Shown here in pieces: positions 1 through 5,334 of a stretch of DNA of 5,334 nucleotides. Source of the DNA: Candidatus Undinarchaeales archaeon SRR5007147.bin71. GTDB taxonomy: Archaea > Undinarchaeota > Undinarchaeia > Undinarchaeales > Undinarchaeaceae. A program made the translations under genes and the position numbers. The notes under the pieces are model-generated. The model was not told where the DNA came from and ran no database searches. It was given only the letters and a program-made list of their open reading frames with translations. Location: positions 1-5,334 of the forward strand of contig DVAE01000005.1 of the NCBI GenBank assembly GCA_014189675.1. The letters run 5' to 3'. The first letter of the stretch is position 1; each line of letters starts with the position of its first letter.

Positions 1-1885
1 GAAGCATTTTGGATTCTTCAACAAATTTGATAAGGTTCTCAGATGAAAGTCCTTCCTTCCCTTTGTCCCTTTCTTCAAGAAGGTAGCGGTATGAGTCCAT
101 AGTCTTTTGTCTGCTTTTTTCGGTTTTTCCAAGAACTTCTTTCTTCTCTCTCTCAAGCGGTCGGCTTCTTCTCTTGACATTTATCCCAGTCACTTCAGCA
201 AGAGCTACGGAGAGTTCCTTGCTGTCAATTGCCTTCTCTATCTCTTTGTCTACAAGAACTTTTTTACCTGAGAATTCAGCTTCCGTCTCCTCTATTTCCA
301 CCTTTTCTATCAAAGGCGCCGGTTTTCCAATCTGGTGACCTGCTTCCAGCAGGTCTTTTGCGTTTTCCCAGCCCTGCTCTTCAACAAGTCCATCTCTTCC
401 TAACTGTTCCCATATTTTTTGGGCGGTTTCGGGCATAAAGGGACTTAGCTGTATTGCAAGTGAGTTGACGACGGAAGCGCAGAGATTCAATGGAGTTCCA
501 TCTTCCTTGTTTTTCCAGGGAGATTTTTCATTTAGGTACTGATTTCCTGCCGCAGCAAGGGCAAGAACTTCCTTCAGCGCGTCCATAAACTTAAATTTTT
601 CTATGTGCTTCGCTGCATCGTCTGGTGTTTTCTGTATCTTTTCAATAATTGTCTGGTCAGCATCATCTAATTCGGCCTGCTCAGGAACTTTTCCCTCGTA
701 GAATTTTTCTATAAAGGTGAGAACTCTGTGAACAAAATTTCCAATAACGTCGGAGAGTTCATTGTTTATTCTTGCCTGGAAATCATCCCAGGAAAAATCC
801 ATATCGCTGTCCAAAGGCGAGTTTATTGTAAGATAATATCTCAGATAGTCTGCGGGATAGTCCTTGAGAAAGTCATCTATCCATATAACCCAGTTTCTTG
901 AAGTTGACATTTTCTTGCCCTCAAGGCTCAGGTATTCACCTGCTGGTATTGTCCATGGGAGTGAATATTTCCCGTGCGCTTTGAGCATCGCCGGCCAGAA
1001 AAGAGCATGATGGTATATTATGTCCTTTCCAATGAAGTGGACAATTTTTGAGTCTGTCCAGTATTTCTCCCAGTCCTTCCCTGTCTTCTTTCCCCACTCT
1101 TCTGTGGCTGAAATATAGCCAATAGGAGCATCCCACCAGACGTAGAGGACCTTTCCTTTACTGTTCTTTACAGGTACAGGAATTCCCCAGTCCATATCTC
1201 TTGTAATGCACCAGTCTTCCAAGTTCTCCAGCCAAGTTACTGCATAGTTCTTCACATTGTCCTGAAGCTCGTCACTGTCTAAGAACTTGGAAAGGTCTTC
1301 CTTGAATGATCTAAGCTTGAAAAACCAATGCTCAGTTTTCTTCATTTCGGGACTGCTGCTGCACAGCATACATCTTGGATTGACAAGCTCGCTCAGAGCC
1401 TGTGCACATTTTTCACAGTGGTCTCCTCTCGCTCCCTCTGCGCCACAGTCGGGACATTCTCCTTCGACATAGCGATCCGGAAGAAATCTTGAGCAGTGCT
1501 CGCAATAGTACTGGTCAACTTCTTTTGTGTAAATATGTCCGTTTTTTTCTGCTTCAGTAAAAAATTCCTGCGCCTTCTTAATGTTTGTTGGGCTGCTGGT
1601 CCTTGAAAAATAGTCAAATTTTATATTTAATCCCTCAAAATTTTCCTTTATTACCTTGTGGTACTTTTCGGCAACTTTAATCGGGCTTATTCCCTCCTTT
1701 TCCGCGCTGACCGTTATTGGTGTTCCGTGCTCGTCTGTAGAGCAGATAAATAGTGATTCCTTGCCTCTAAGTCGAAGGTAGCGCGCGTATAAGTCTCCAG
1801 GGAGATAAGTGGACCTAATGTGGCCCACGTGCAGAGGCCCGTTCGCGTATGGAAGCGCACAGGTAACTAAATAGCGTTCGGTCAT
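1..1885 (-). CDS. metG: Methionyl-tRNA synthetase, archaeal type (C-terminus beyond window)
   Basis: Class I aminoacyl-tRNA synthetase that charges tRNA-Met with methionine in the cytoplasm. My translation of the minus strand from the ATG at 1885 is open for 628 codons to the left edge, with no stop. Visible hallmarks: the HIGH motif as HVGH (residues 19-22) after LPYANGPL; the zinc-binding insert with four CxxC pairs (C128/C131, C144/C147, C157/C160, C172/C175), the two-knuckle form; YVWWDAPIGY (248-257); HFIGKDIIYHHALFWPA (283-299); the KMSKS loop as KMSTS (325-329); and the helical anticodon-binding domain with RINNELSD (372-379) and SPW (455-457), where W457 matches the conserved anticodon-reading tryptophan. 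Residues from about 530 form a charged, Lys/Glu-rich extension in which I do not recognise the EMAP-II/Trbp-like tRNA-binding domain; one may lie past the edge. Start choice: TATA-like box 29 bases upstream, also an AAGGAGTG. Transcribed divergently from the gene at 1964. Identification is firm. Confidence 0.97.
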   Translation of the reverse strand, partial: MTERYLVTCALPYANGPLHVGHIRSTYLPGDLYARYLRLRGKESLFICSTDEHGTPITVSAEKEGISPIKVAEKYHKVIKENFEGLNIKFDYFSRTSSPTNIKKAQEFFTEAEKNGHIYTKEVDQYYCEHCSRFLPDRYVEGECPDCGAEGARGDHCEKCAQALSELVNPRCMLCSSSPEMKKTEHWFFKLRSFKEDLSKFLDSDELQDNVKNYAVTWLENLEDWCITRDMDWGIPVPVKNSKGKVLYVWWDAPIGYISATEEWGKKTGKDWEKYWTDSKIVHFIGKDIIYHHALFWPAMLKAHGKYSLPWTIPAGEYLSLEGKKMSTSRNWVIWIDDFLKDYPADYLRYYLTINSPLDSDMDFSWDDFQARINNELSDVIGNFVHRVLTFIEKFYEGKVPEQAELDDADQTIIEKIQKTPDDAAKHIEKFKFMDALKEVLALAAAGNQYLNEKSPWKNKEDGTPLNLCASVVNSLAIQLSPFMPETAQKIWEQLGRDGLVEEQGWENAKDLLEAGHQIGKPAPLIEKVEIEETEAEFSGKKVLVDKEIEKAIDSKELSVALAEVTGINVKRRSRPLEREKKEVLGKTEKSRQKTMDSYRYLLEERDKGKEGLSSENLIKFVEESKML

Positions 1886-1892
1886 CTTTTAA

Positions 1893-1900
1893 CACTCCTT
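1893..1900 (-). promoter_or_regulatory. Possible Shine-Dalgarno site of metG
   Basis: The minus strand reads AAGGAGTG, ending seven bases before the metG ATG at 1885, a normal ribosome-binding distance. It is the only clear Shine-Dalgarno-like sequence before any start in the window. It is usable only if transcription starts upstream of 1900, which conflicts with the start near 1888 predicted from the nearest TATA box. Confidence 0.45.
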
Positions 1901-1908
1901 GCTGTTCC

Positions 1909-1919
1909 TTTTATATATT
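1909..1919 (-). promoter_or_regulatory. TATA-like promoter box for metG
   Basis: Read on the minus strand this is AATATATAAAA, centred about 29 bases upstream of the metG ATG at 1885. Archaeal transcription usually starts some 25 bases past the box centre, which puts the start near 1888 and gives an almost leaderless mRNA. A second AT-rich box at 1931-1945 could instead drive a longer leader that would include the Shine-Dalgarno sequence at 1893-1900. Confidence 0.6.
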
Positions 1920-1932
1920 GTTAATTCGCCAA

Positions 1933-1941
1933 TTATAAATA
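1933..1941 (+). promoter_or_regulatory. TATA-like promoter box for the membrane-anchored paralogue gene
   Basis: TTATAAATA, centred about 27 bases before the ATG at 1964, with no Shine-Dalgarno sequence between them. The spacing predicts transcription starting at or beside the A of the start codon, so a leaderless mRNA. The element sits in a 78-base region shared with the divergent metG promoter. Confidence 0.65.
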
Positions 1942-1963
1942 AAAGACTTTCCACATAGTTTTC

Positions 1964-3694
1964 ATGAGTTCCGCTGCAAAAGCTGCAAAAAAGAGAATTA
2001 TTCTTGGAATTAAGGTAACTGTAATTATTCTCGTTGTCGGCGGTCTAATTTTTGCAGTGGATAAAGGCTTTGATATTGGCATTTATTCTGCTATAGGTTC
2101 TGGTATAGGTTCCATAAGCACCGGTGGCGGTGGAGGAAGAGGAGTTTCTGGCGGAGCTGGCGGAGACGGATCTGGCGGAGCCGGAGCCGGAGGAATGGGC
2201 ATTATTTTGCTTGCTGTAGCAGCAATTTTACTTTTATTTTTAGGACGAAAAGGACTTGGTGGAATTGGAAGGTGGCGTGCAAGGCACAGAGATCCTGGAG
2301 AAGCCCCAGATATATATGGTGACGATGCAGACGATGCTGATGACGAAGAAGGAGAAGGGGGAGAAGAGGATGATGAAGGTGACGCTGGTCTCGTTCCGGA
2401 AGACGAAGTACCTGGTGGCGGTCCTCTTGTTCCGGATGAAGTTCCTCCTGATGCTGCAGCCCTTGTAGACGATGAATCAGGAAGGCACTATAATTACACA
2501 AGAAGAATAATGTCTCACAGAAGGCGACTTGCTATACATGATTATATTGAGGAGTTCTTCGTGCACCACCATGAAAATGATAAGATTCCATTGTTTGAAT
2601 TGATAGCTGGTGGCTGTGACCGTGACGATAATACTCTTTTTTTAAGCCATTATTATGTATTAAGAAAGAACTTGACGAGAGATATGATGTCTCGTTTTCT
2701 TATCGAGCACGGTTTTAATGCAATAATGGATACCTGGCAGATGGGTCGTTCAAAGAAAGTAAAAATAACAGATTACAATTATGCAAAAGAGCTTCCAATG
2801 GTCCTTGCAATAACAAATTATTACAGACATGAGGAAAAAAAGCTTCCAGAATACATTGAAAGAAAGATGCCACTTGCCCATCTCTTTGGTGAAACTGTCT
2901 GGGTCTCTGGTAAGGGAAAACGCCAGTTCAGCAAGCTTGTTATGTCTGAACACAAACCTAATTATCTTCATTCTGATGATACGATGAGGCAATTTTTTCC
3001 CGCTCTTCAAAAATACAATGAGCTTCTTGATGACCACGAAATCAGGGACGACTATCTCCATTCAAGAGAGTTCCGTGACCTTGATAATTTTCCTGAGGAC
3101 TTAAAACTTAATGCTGCAAGCTTCAACACTGATGAAGTGCAGCGCTTCTATATGGCTCTTACATCCTATCTGTGGAGTGTTTTCAGCAGAAGATTACCAG
3201 GGGCTACTATGGACACTTTCCTAAAGGTTGTTTCAGGATTCCAGACTTCTTCAGGAGTAAATACGGCTTATGGCATTCAACACAGGCTATATACTATCAT
3301 AACTGAGCGTGAAATTAAAAGTGCTCTTGAAAGAGCTAATTATGAATCAATAAAAGGGCAGACAATAGCTGCTTCCCAAAAAGTTCCTGACTTAATAAAT
3401 ATATGTGAGCAGGAACTTGCCACTCTAAATGAGATATGTGAAACTATAGAGAGTGATGATTTTAGAACAATAAAACGTCTTGTCAAGAGAAATACTTCAT
3501 ATGAAGACAGAGACGGAAATAAAGTTCTGGTTTTTACTGCTGATGCTGAGCTGGACACAATTGTTCCACAACTAAAAGCATTTTTACTCCTGGTATTTGT
3601 CCCATGGAAGCATTTAATGGCCGACCAGAAGTTGCATGCCATTGTCTGGGCTAAATTAGTTGAGAATCTGAAAAATCTCTCAAATACGGAATAG
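1964..3694 (+). CDS. Unrecognised membrane-anchored protein with paralogous helical cytoplasmic domain
   Basis: 576 residues; I do not recognise the family and assign no function. Order of parts: short basic N-terminus (K6, K9, K10, R11); transmembrane segment 1 (about 12-33); Gly/Ser-rich loop (about 45-79); transmembrane segment 2 (about 79-94); basic stretch (R95, K96, R103, R105, R107); acidic Asp/Glu linker (about 116-140); Pro/Val/acidic linker (to about 172); then a soluble, mostly helical domain (about 173-576). The positive-inside rule puts both ends of the hairpin and the large domain in the cytoplasm, with the glycine loop outside. The domain aligns along its whole length with the next protein (3726-4973): LFEL (210-213), WQMG (258-261), MPLAHLFG (302-309), KPN (331-333), YLWSVFSR (402-409), YGIQHR (436-441), VKRN (507-510) and FVPW (545-548). 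No HExxH, Walker or other catalytic signature was seen. The start is supported by a TATA box 27 bases upstream and by the basic-then-hydrophobic N-terminus. Confidence 0.93.
   Translation: MSSAAKAAKKRIILGIKVTVIILVVGGLIFAVDKGFDIGIYSAIGSGIGSISTGGGGGRGVSGGAGGDGSGGAGAGGMGIILLAVAAILLLFLGRKGLGGIGRWRARHRDPGEAPDIYGDDADDADDEEGEGGEEDDEGDAGLVPEDEVPGGGPLVPDEVPPDAAALVDDESGRHYNYTRRIMSHRRRLAIHDYIEEFFVHHHENDKIPLFELIAGGCDRDDNTLFLSHYYVLRKNLTRDMMSRFLIEHGFNAIMDTWQMGRSKKVKITDYNYAKELPMVLAITNYYRHEEKKLPEYIERKMPLAHLFGETVWVSGKGKRQFSKLVMSEHKPNYLHSDDTMRQFFPALQKYNELLDDHEIRDDYLHSREFRDLDNFPEDLKLNAASFNTDEVQRFYMALTSYLWSVFSRRLPGATMDTFLKVVSGFQTSSGVNTAYGIQHRLYTIITEREIKSALERANYESIKGQTIAASQKVPDLINICEQELATLNEICETIESDDFRTIKRLVKRNTSYEDRDGNKVLVFTADAELDTIVPQLKAFLLLVFVPWKHLMADQKLHAIVWAKLVENLKNLSNTE
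2124..2196 (+). repeat. GGN-rich low-complexity stretch coding the glycine loop
   Basis: A G-rich run of GGN/GCN codons (ggtggcggtggagga, then several ggcgga units) encodes the Gly/Ala/Ser loop between the two membrane segments of the protein at 1964. It stands out against the AT-rich flanks. Units are imperfect, so it is a low-complexity coding tract, not an exact tandem repeat; it may vary in length between strains. Confidence 0.7.
2320..2382 (+). repeat. Low-complexity acidic (Asp/Glu) codon tract
   Basis: Purine-rich gac/gat/gaa/gag codons, with imperfect gacgatgc units near its start, encode the Asp/Glu-rich linker (about residues 119-140) of the protein at 1964. It separates the membrane hairpin from the soluble domain and is probably disordered. 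The soluble paralogue at 3726 has no counterpart. Confidence 0.65.
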
Positions 3695-3702
3695 TTTATA
3701 TA
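3695..3702 (+). promoter_or_regulatory. TATA box for the soluble paralogue, abutting the upstream stop codon
   Basis: TTTATATA begins at the base after the TAG stop (3692-3694) of the preceding gene and is centred about 27 bases before the ATG at 3726. No Shine-Dalgarno sequence precedes that ATG. The arrangement predicts a separate leaderless transcript, although read-through from the upstream gene is not excluded. Confidence 0.7.
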
Positions 3703-3725
3703 CAAGATTTGACATCGTTAATAAC

Positions 3726-4973
3726 ATGGCGACCTATAAAGATACAAAATTCAGGAATGCTGCGTACGATAAAATTTCTGACTGGTTTGAGGACGTTCAG
3801 GAAGAAGACTCATTTTCAAAAGATTTACACCTCTTTGAGCTTGCGAAGGGTTCAGAAGACCCCGTAGCAATTGAAGGAACAAGTTATTATCTAGGATATC
3901 CAGGTTTGGAAACGAAGACTTACAAAGGTGTATGCACTCGTTTTTATAGTAAACGATATAAGAAAATCAAAAAGGATTGGCAGATAGGCGGAGAAGACGC
4001 AGATAAAGATGCTGATTTTACATATGGTGATGAGCTTTCCTGGACTCTCTCAGTTTTAGAATTTCTCAAACAGGATGAGCGAGAAATAAACGAGAGTATG
4101 AGGGAGAGAATGCCCCTTGCCCACTTGTTTGGTCAGAAATTATGGGTGGCAGGAGGAACAAGGAGAAATTTCAGAAATATTGTTATGGCTGAGAAGAAGC
4201 CAAACTTCCTTCCGGATGATAGCTCTCTTGCTCAGTTAATGGCAGCGTATAAGGCATACAATAAGGTGGTTGAGGATGCTAGATTTACTGAGCATTATAG
4301 TATAGATGCTGACTTAGGTATGAGGCGTGGTATTGTAGTTGGTGGTTTTACATTTAAAGGAAGTGGCATATCTTCTAAAGTTTCAAATAAATACTTCTCA
4401 ATATGTCTCACAGCTTATTTGTGGCGGGTTTTCAGCAGAGAGCTCAGAGGAAAGGACATGGACGCATTTACAAGAGTGATGAACACAAGAGTCAATGAAA
4501 GTTCTGAATCCTCTACAGTTTATGGAGATGTACACAGAGTACTTTCTCTTGTATCAAGCCGTGAAATGAAGTACGCCCTTGAAAATGACGATTTCAGCAA
4601 TGTTGAAGGTCAAATAGTCAAGCTGAAAGAGCTCAAAAAGAGACTTCTTGAACAGTCTCAGTTTGATCTAAAAACTGTTTACAAGGTTCTTGATGTAATT
4701 GAACACACATCAGAGAATAAAATAGAGAGAATAATTAAGAGGAATATAAAGTACTTGGACAGGAGTGATAATGTCAAGTATATCCTTCCTGAGGAGAAGC
4801 TGGATGTAATTCTGGATTTCTATTCTCCAAGAATAAAAGCATACCTGATACTCACATTCAGACCTTGGGTGGAGTATCTAACTCACTACAGAATACTTTC
4901 AATAGTTATAGCAAAGTTTGTTGATTCTCTTGAGAAATCGGCAAAAGACCTAAGTACAAAGGTTTTGGCATAA
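3726..4973 (+). CDS. Unrecognised soluble protein, paralogue of the preceding membrane protein
   Basis: 415 residues with no signal peptide or membrane segment; probably cytoplasmic and mostly helical. Family not recognised; no function assigned. It aligns end to end with residues about 180-576 of the protein at 1964. Shared landmarks: LFEL (36-39), WQIG (85-88), MPLAHLFG (129-136), KPN (158-160), YLWRVFSR (231-238), YGDVHR (266-271), SREMKYALE (278-286), IKRN (337-340) and FRPW (378-381). Over the 56 residues starting at MPLAHLFG I count 26 identities by eye. It lacks the membrane hairpin and both linkers, and around 198-220 carries a Gly-rich stretch that differs from its partner. Residues about 293-330 are Lys/Glu/Leu-rich and could form a coiled coil. 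The gap from the previous gene is only 31 bases and contains its own TATA box; the ATG has no Shine-Dalgarno, as expected for a leaderless start. Tandem duplication followed by gain or loss of the anchor is the simplest origin (inference). Confidence 0.93.
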   Translation: MATYKDTKFRNAAYDKISDWFEDVQEEDSFSKDLHLFELAKGSEDPVAIEGTSYYLGYPGLETKTYKGVCTRFYSKRYKKIKKDWQIGGEDADKDADFTYGDELSWTLSVLEFLKQDEREINESMRERMPLAHLFGQKLWVAGGTRRNFRNIVMAEKKPNFLPDDSSLAQLMAAYKAYNKVVEDARFTEHYSIDADLGMRRGIVVGGFTFKGSGISSKVSNKYFSICLTAYLWRVFSRELRGKDMDAFTRVMNTRVNESSESSTVYGDVHRVLSLVSSREMKYALENDDFSNVEGQIVKLKELKKRLLEQSQFDLKTVYKVLDVIEHTSENKIERIIKRNIKYLDRSDNVKYILPEEKLDVILDFYSPRIKAYLILTFRPWVEYLTHYRILSIVIAKFVDSLEKSAKDLSTKVLA

Positions 4974-4982
4974 GTACCTAGA

Positions 4983-5011: not shown

Positions 5012-5334
5012 ATGAAAGATTTAATCAAGAGTCTGGATTTTGCAAAGGGTTCGGTTATGGACAGCTCTATTATGCAGTCAGGCCAGGGAATCTCCAAATA
5101 TGACCTGAATCCTGTAAGCCCTGAGCTTTTCAGCTCCTACGAGCCCTACGACGCCCCGAAGGACTTCAAACTGGCTGCTTTTGACGGCGGCTCTCTGATG
5201 ATTTACGAAACCCCCACTATCGGTTTCGCCTATTACAAGCTTGCCTTCAGGCAGTTTCAAGTTAACTTGGAAGAGAAGACCTGCACAACTGTAGAGATAA
5301 ACAAAGACCTTCAACACGGCCTTTTTCTGCTCTC
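5012..5334 (+). CDS. N-terminal part of an unidentified gene, possibly a NurA-domain nuclease
   Basis: An open frame of 107 codons plus two bases runs off the right edge. It begins MKDLIKSLDFAKG and contains AAFDGGS (residues 55-61) after a short N-terminal helical and Pro-containing segment. NurA-family 5'-3' nucleases, which work with HerA, Mre11 and Rad50 in archaeal DNA end resection, have an early strand ending in a catalytic Asp within a DGS or DGGS-like motif. D58 fits that pattern, but the remaining catalytic residues would lie beyond the window, so the assignment is tentative. An unrelated protein with a chance DGGS is possible. The start is supported by the TATA box 26 bases upstream and the lack of an in-frame alternative with better signals. 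It seems to use more C-ending codons (gac, ggc, ccc, tac) than the two genes before it; this was judged by eye. No herA is visible here. Confidence 0.85.
   Translation, partial: MKDLIKSLDFAKGSVMDSSIMQSGQGISKYDLNPVSPELFSSYEPYDAPKDFKLAAFDGGSLMIYETPTIGFAYYKLAFRQFQVNLEEKTCTTVEINKDLQHGLFLL

What the first reader, a model, noticed from the sequence alone, without database searches (positions are those of the whole stretch)
1964..4973. Tandem paralogues of an unrecognised family, one membrane-anchored and one soluble
The C-terminal ~400 residues of the first protein and the whole of the second align in the same order with matching spacing (MPLAHLFG to YLWxVFSR is 100 residues in the first and 102 in the second). 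Identity is high in blocks (26 of 56 from MPLAHLFG; 13 of 23 around YLWxVFSR) and low elsewhere, which suggests an old duplication with both copies under selection. A tethered and a free copy side by side suggests a two-component assembly, such as a hetero-oligomer recruited to the membrane. The alignment is seen; the joint role is inferred.
Basis: partly seen in the sequence, partly recalled or inferred. Interest (0 to 1): 0.65.

Follow-up and report, generated by a model that had tools for sequence, protein, structure and literature searches.

The report
Swappable membrane-tethered and free protein pair
In a tiny uncultured archaeon, two neighbouring sister genes (one protein fixed to the inner face of the membrane, one free in the cell) form the one stretch of the compared genome that has been replaced wholesale between related species while the genes on both sides stayed nearly identical, which points to a fast-changing recognition or conflict system of unknown type.

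Summary
P1 (1964-3694) and P2 (3726-4973) are paralogues: 31% identity over 398 residues, E 2e-58. P1 has an N-terminal TM-glycine loop-TM hairpin and P2 has none. The shared ~390-residue domain matches nothing in Pfam, NCBIfam, PADLOC, PHROGs or PDB; an AlphaFold2 model (pLDDT 71, pTM 0.77) is an all-helical bundle.

Against a sister species, DNA identity is 90.6% up to window 2313 (end of the hairpin), vanishes over 2314-4981, and returns at 94.3% at NurA. This is the only such break in ~402 kb of aligned DNA (mean identity 84%), apart from a 0.7-kb gap between poorly conserved flanks. Near the cassette, 54% of informative sites contradict the species grouping, against 18% farther out (p~1e-20), so the flanks have recombined between species. 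Within each genome P1 and P2 resemble each other more than their counterparts elsewhere.

In other genera the MetRS-NurA interval also holds hairpin-anchored genes, with different domains and a KaiC ATPase. Best reading: an allele-matched tethered/free recognition module spread by recombination in conserved flanks. Its role is inferred. Closest analogue: Thermococcales VARTIG, but not a member.

The parts
1964..3694 (+). P1, membrane-tethered paralogue, 576 aa
   Evidence: ORF; paralogous to P2; two hydrophobic segments
1964..2313 (+). Conserved anchor of P1: TM1 (about residues 12-32), glycine-rich 44-residue loop, TM2 (about 75-97), then an Arg-rich patch; N-in/C-in by the positive-inside rule, so the C-terminal domain is predicted cytosolic
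   Evidence: Hydropathy; 87% nt / 83% aa identity with G001; the same hairpin recurs on a papain-like protein and in G004
2314..4981 (+). Variable cassette: cytosolic part of P1 plus all of P2; no DNA similarity to the sister species G001, whose equivalent is 2469 bp
   Evidence: blastn break at 2313 and 4982; the only such replacement with well-conserved flanks in ~402 kb aligned
2525..3676 (+). Shared helical domain in P1 (residues 188-571)
   Evidence: blastp alignment with P2
3726..4973 (+). P2, soluble paralogue, 415 aa, consisting wholly of the shared domain
   Evidence: ORF; no hydrophobic segment; AF2 model all-helical, pLDDT 71, pTM 0.77
2867..3034 (+). Matched block 1 in P1 (MPLAHLFG...): resembles P2 of the same genome, differs between genomes
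4110..4277 (+). Matched block 1 in P2
3161..3229 (+). Matched block 2 in P1 (YLWxVFSR block)
4410..4478 (+). Matched block 2 in P2
1932..1944 (+). TATA-like box (AATTATAAATAAA) about 26 bp upstream of the P1 ATG; read by eye, suggests a leaderless transcript
3694..3704 (+). TATA-like box (GTTTATATACA) about 26 bp upstream of the P2 ATG; P2 may have its own promoter
2..1885 (-). Left recombining flank: methionyl-tRNA synthetase (cut by the contig end)
   Evidence: Pfam tRNA-synt_1g 3e-162; fourfold-site divergence from G001 13% in the 300 codons nearest the cassette, about 29% farther away
5012..5334 (+). Right recombining flank: NurA nuclease 5' part; HerA follows on contig C28
   Evidence: Continues in L016 as NurA-like then HerA (DUF87); the G003 syntenic NurA is confirmed by Pfam; 5' part pS 0.149 against a genome median of 0.485

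Best explanation
P1 and P2 form one allele-matched, two-protein module on the cytoplasmic side of the membrane. P1 holds one copy of a new helical domain at the membrane through a glycine-rich TM hairpin; P2 is the same domain without the anchor. Shown: paralogy, co-occurrence, and replacement of the whole domain pair (not the anchor) between species, with homologous recombination in the MetRS/anchor and NurA flanks. Predicted: the TM hairpin and its topology. Inferred: (i) the two copies co-assemble through the two blocks in which they match each other within a genome but differ between genomes, or they bind one common variable partner through them; (ii) the free copy exchanges with or caps the tethered one, so that a mismatched or missing partner is read as a signal; (iii) selection for rare or different types, from viruses, mobile elements or contact with other strains (self/non-self), keeps alternative cassettes in circulation.
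For: Break and return of DNA identity at 2313 and 4982 with 90.6% and 94.3% flanks. In ~402 kb aligned the only other collinear gap over 500 bp in both genomes is 0.7 kb between 67-74% flanks. P1/P2 is the most divergent syntenic locus of 391 compared genes; the one lower pair is two unrelated glycosyltransferases, judged by eye. Divergence falls towards the cassette on both sides. Mosaic flanks: in the anchor G001-G002 differ by 0.055 and G000-G002 by 0.121; near the cassette 85 of 158 informative sites contradict the species grouping, against 216 of 1195 farther out, p 1e-20. Within-genome matching: 28 sites against 4 and 3, with the G001 pair 100% supported in the tree. Both genes under constraint. 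Anchor hairpin plus soluble genes recur at the same place in other genera, including a non-homologous tethered/free paralogue pair.
Against: No interaction evidence and no complex model. Only three genomes of the genus, in effect two cassette types. No defence or toxin family match. Overall omega is below 1 (0.22 and 0.50), so positive selection is at most local (P2 residues 41-80). Each gene seems to have its own promoter. Recombining flanks show exchange near the cassette, but not that selection on the cassette drove it.
Confidence: 0.45

Rival explanations
1. The locus is a KaiC-centred membrane signalling hub. Hairpin-anchored and soluble scaffold/adaptor proteins work with a KaiC-family ATPase in related genera, and P1/P2 are the remnant or a re-tooled version in a genus that lost the KaiC.
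For: KaiC ATPase (Pfam 2.8e-20) between the anchored/soluble genes and NurA in G003; the two halves of one KaiC lie at the facing contig ends of the same interval in G004; one anchored G003 protein has a weak DUF835 match, E 0.004-0.016. DUF835-KaiC association and KaiC hubs in archaea are known from the literature (recalled; that paper was not readable here).
Against: No KaiC in the locus in the window's genus; the remaining KaiC-family hits there have RadA/RadB sizes (inference). The helical domain of P1/P2 is not detectably related to the G003 domains tested. The DUF835-like fold could not be modelled (pLDDT 46).
Confidence: 0.2
2. A polymorphic-toxin-like system: the anchored protein carries a variable effector domain, and the free copy is a spare effector cassette or a protector.
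For: A first long gene followed by a shorter gene homologous to its C-terminal region, with exchange of the C-terminal part, is the layout of polymorphic toxin systems as summarised in PMC8416519. The same anchor carries a papain-like peptidase at a second locus, next to T4SS genes in G001.
Against: No signal peptide; the C-terminal domain is predicted cytosolic. No toxin or immunity family match. Both copies carry the same domain rather than effector plus immunity.
Confidence: 0.12
3. No cassette exchange: an unconstrained scaffold pair simply diverges very fast in place, and its flanks happen to be conserved.
For: Only three genomes; the domain aligns end to end at 24-27% between G000 and G001 orthologues, so the two versions are homologous.
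Against: Identity drops from about 90% to nothing within a few codons; purifying selection between G000 and G002; topological conflict in both flanks; no other locus in ~402 kb behaves so.
Confidence: 0.15

Closest known systems
VARTIG modules of Thermococcales (Makarova et al. 2021, PMC8416519)
   Same: First gene long with a hypervariable C-terminal region, followed by shorter genes homologous to that region; diversification by recombination between species rather than between loci of one genome; function unknown, conflict or self/non-self proposed. G003 and G004 versions of the locus carry Ig-like or CarboxypepD_reg domains.
   Different: The window pair has no Ig domain, no signal peptide and a predicted cytosolic all-helical domain; it sits at one fixed syntenic place, and both copies change together. 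The VARTIG paper reports no counterparts outside Thermococcales and could not map recombination at DNA level; here the breakpoints and recombining flanks are visible.
Polymorphic toxin systems of archaea and bacteria
   Same: Conserved N-terminal part, exchangeable C-terminal part, downstream homologous short gene.
   Different: No secretion signal, no recognised toxin or immunity domain; the N-terminal part is a TM hairpin that keeps the domain inside.
Archaeal KaiC/DUF835 signalling proteins
   Same: A KaiC ATPase lies in the same interval in two other genera, and one anchored protein there has a weak DUF835 match.
   Different: No KaiC in the interval in the window's genus, and P1/P2 have no DUF835 or KaiC domain.
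HerA-NurA end-resection operon
   Same: Immediate neighbour, in synteny in several genera of the order.
   Different: Ordinary housekeeping neighbour; no domain of P1/P2 suggests a part in DNA repair, and its role here looks like that of a conserved recombining flank.

Membership tests
VARTIG | Hypervariable C-terminal region of the long protein, changed by interspecies recombination | tested here: met
[quoted passage not shown]
   P2 aligns to P1 residues 188-571, E 2e-58
VARTIG | Immunoglobulin domains in the long protein | tested here: not met
   No Ig family in P1/P2; AF2 model of P2 all-helical
VARTIG | Signal peptide / cell-surface location | tested here: not met
   TM-loop-TM hairpin with Arg-rich patch after TM2 predicts a cytosolic C-terminal domain; P2 has no hydrophobic segment; prediction only
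Polymorphic toxin system | Recognisable toxin or immunity domain | tested here: inconclusive
   No match in Pfam, NCBIfam, PADLOC, PHROGs; an unknown toxin cannot be excluded
Polymorphic toxin system | Secretion or trafficking N-terminal region | tested here: not met
   Hairpin anchor, no known trafficking domain
KaiC/DUF835 hub | KaiC-family ATPase in the locus | tested here: not met
   Absent from the interval in G000, G001, G002; present in G003 and G004
KaiC/DUF835 hub | DUF835 domain in the anchored or soluble partner | tested here: not met
   None in P1/P2; E 0.004-0.016 only in one G003 protein
Known anti-phage defence systems | Match to a PADLOC model | tested here: not met
   No hit for P1/P2; best for the G001 homologue E 0.018
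Alpha-helical pore-forming toxins (ClyA/AhlB type) | Fold match of the shared domain | tested here: inconclusive
   VIA Z 6-7.5 among generic helical bundles, below the level expected by chance for helical models; Foldseek best E 0.09

The most novel reading that the evidence does not exclude
An intracellular self/non-self (allotype) recognition system of small-genome archaea: a membrane-tethered and a free copy of one polymorphic helical domain check each other for identity, alternative types are maintained in populations and swapped between species through conserved flanks, and other genera use unrelated domains in the same tethered/free layout at the same chromosomal position.
Probability: 0.15. 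Interest if true: 0.9.

Novelty: new variant of a known kind. Interest (0 to 1): 0.6.

Why it matters
Hypervariable recombining modules of this kind in archaea were described for Thermococcales only, and that paper found no counterparts elsewhere and could not resolve how the recombination happens (PMC8416519). Here, in a small-genome archaeal lineage outside Thermococcales, one can read the breakpoints and the recombining flanks in DNA, and the variable unit is a pair of matched proteins with one simple difference, an anchor. That makes a concrete question testable: do the two copies recognise each other, and does the match matter? It also adds an unclassified protein domain and a conserved membrane hairpin that carries different cytosolic domains.

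Tried and rejected
Pfam, NCBIfam, PADLOC, PHROGs and PDB sequence searches for P1/P2: nothing above cut-offs. Viral contigs and plasmids: no relatives. About 390 further archaeal genomes with the profile: only chance-level hits outside the order. Structure search of the P2 model: no Foldseek match (best E 0.09); VIA best Z 7.5 to artificial and pore-toxin helical bundles, taken as generic. A DNA-repair role from the NurA-HerA/Mre11-Rad50 neighbours: rejected as the main reading, since the neighbours are housekeeping genes kept in synteny. DUF835 fold of the G003 pair: AF2 model too poor (pLDDT 46), so not searched. Homology of the G004 384-aa soluble gene to P2: not shown (blastp against its own anchored neighbour E 0.93; hhalign against the family E 0.17); the strong scores for G004 are circular, since those sequences were in the profile. 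Homology of the G003 788-aa and 620-aa genes to the domain: not shown (control). Chimeric assembly as cause of the break: rejected, since the G000-type cassette is in two independent MAGs and the G001 cassette lies inside a 173-kb contig with both flanks.

Full report
SETTING. The window is one whole contig (C27, 5334 bp) of a 624-kb, 83%-complete archaeal MAG in 39 contigs. A genus-mate, G002, is archaeon UBA55 (its contig C9 and DAFN01000018.1 are both 48,808 bp with the same match); another, G001, is at about 84% DNA identity to the window genome. Only six genomes of the phylum are held. Gene order in the genus: MetRS (minus) | P1 | P2 | NurA | HerA, then a 267-aa membrane protein and Rad50 convergent. 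G000 contig C28 continues C27 with an exact 141-bp overlap inside NurA.

P1 has a TM hairpin with a 44-residue, 21-Gly loop and an Arg-rich patch after TM2; by the positive-inside rule the rest of P1 is cytosolic (prediction). P2 has no hydrophobic segment.

IDENTITY OF THE DOMAIN. No family matches, no PDB sequence match. AlphaFold2 of P2 with six sequences: pLDDT 71, pTM 0.77, nearly all helix, best in residues 220-410; no convincing fold match. It is an unclassified helical domain; a known fold missed by these searches is not excluded.

THE CASSETTE. Between G000 and G001 blastn runs at 90.6% from window 1 to 2313, stops, and resumes at 4982 at 94.3%. The break in P1 lies just behind the anchor; the other lies in the last bases before NurA. 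The interval is 2668 bp in one and 2469 bp in the other, with homologous but 24-27%-identical proteins. In about 402 kb of aligned DNA (mean identity 84%) the only other collinear gap above 500 bp in both genomes is 0.7 kb between 67-74% flanks. G000 and G002 share one cassette type at about 95%. Gene-wise, pS against G001 is 0.149 (NurA 5'), 0.24 (NurA 3'), 0.25 (anchor) and 0.32 (MetRS), against a genome median of 0.485 over 391 genes, and rises to 0.49-0.63 in HerA and Rad50; taken alone these are low but not extreme (NurA 3' lies at the 7th percentile, MetRS at the 15th). Fourfold-site differences in MetRS are 14/104 in the 300 codons nearest the cassette and 31/108 beyond (summed). A topology test does not depend on conservation: near the cassette 85 of 158 informative sites contradict the G000+G002 grouping, against 216 of 1195 beyond 1.6 kb on the NurA side (Fisher p 1e-20; sites are not fully independent). 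In the anchor G002 is closer to G001 (0.055) than to G000 (0.121). So the flanks have exchanged between species while the interior differs by type. This is the pattern of allelic replacement by homologous recombination; it is shown for two types in three genomes only.

THE TWO COPIES MATCH EACH OTHER. Quartet sites: 28 join copies within a genome, 4 join orthologues, 3 are crossed; the G001 pair is 48% identical, orthologues 24-27%; bootstrap 100. Either each lineage duplicated the domain anew, or the copies are kept alike. Both fit contact with each other or with one shared variable partner (inference). Between G000 and G002 omega is 0.22 (P1 domain) and 0.50 (P2), against 0.07-0.30 in neighbours, with a local excess of amino-acid changes in P2 residues 41-80.

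WIDER LOCUS. Next to MetRS, other genera of the order also have hairpin-anchored genes. G004: anchored 584 aa (CarboxypepD_reg, 1.9e-27), anchored 499 aa, soluble 384 and 386 aa, then half a KaiC at the contig end; the other half starts the NurA-HerA contig, so the contigs probably adjoin. The 499-aa protein is a distant homologue of the P1 domain (hmmsearch E 0.006 at the C-terminus; hhalign E 2e-4 at the N-terminus, score 39 against 15-22 for controls). G003: anchored 788 aa, anchored 677 aa, soluble 592 aa (paralogue of the 677-aa one, E 6e-17), a 620-aa gene, KaiC, NurA, HerA. G005: one anchored 755-aa gene, then the contig end. Thus the tethered/free layout recurs with other domains at one chromosomal place. 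A second locus in the genus carries the same hairpin fused to a papain-like peptidase domain (Peptidase_C1 3e-17).

EXPRESSION. TATA-like boxes lie about 26 bp before the ATGs of P1, P2, NurA and MetRS in G000, so the genes may be transcribed separately and leaderless (inference).

COMPARISON. The layout and mode of change resemble VARTIG, but the Ig domain and surface location, both defining features, were tested and not met, so it is not filed as VARTIG. It works like a hypervariable recombining module; what it recognises is unknown. Confidence in the molecular function is moderate to low, in the evolutionary anatomy high.

Noticed in passing
L028:7670-9283 (G001), L027:1-1458 (G000), L029:4904-6574 (G002): The same TM-glycine-TM hairpin is fused to a papain-like (Peptidase_C1) domain predicted to lie in the cytosol; a 173-174-aa soluble orphan lies next to it in G001 and G002.
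   Followed up: partly
L028:2193-6161 (G001): A type IV secretion-like cluster (T4SS pilin, multi-TM protein, PrgI, VirB4/TraG-like ATPase) next to the papain-like hairpin gene.
   Followed up: no
window 5194-5334; G002 C3/C9 ends at window ~2259-2290: Contig ends fall at or near the cassette boundaries in two MAGs (G000 with an exact 141-bp overlap), possibly because alternative alleles coexist in the sampled populations.
   Followed up: partly
L109 (G004) end and L019 start: KaiC gene split across two contigs; their order suggests MetRS - anchored/soluble genes - KaiC - NurA - HerA as in G003.
   Followed up: partly
L109:788-2542, L133:3046-9301: Ig-like and CarboxypepD_reg domains on proteins predicted to be cytosolic, which is unusual for these normally extracellular domains.
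   Followed up: no
L077:14088-18710 (G000) against L053 (G001): A second fast-diverging stretch with SufD/IscU-like proteins at 46-66% amino-acid identity (names by eye) and pS 0.75-0.83, but still collinear.
   Followed up: no
L133:7523-9301 (G003): The soluble 592-aa paralogue overlaps the end of the anchored gene and starts at TTG, unlike the spaced window genes.
   Followed up: no
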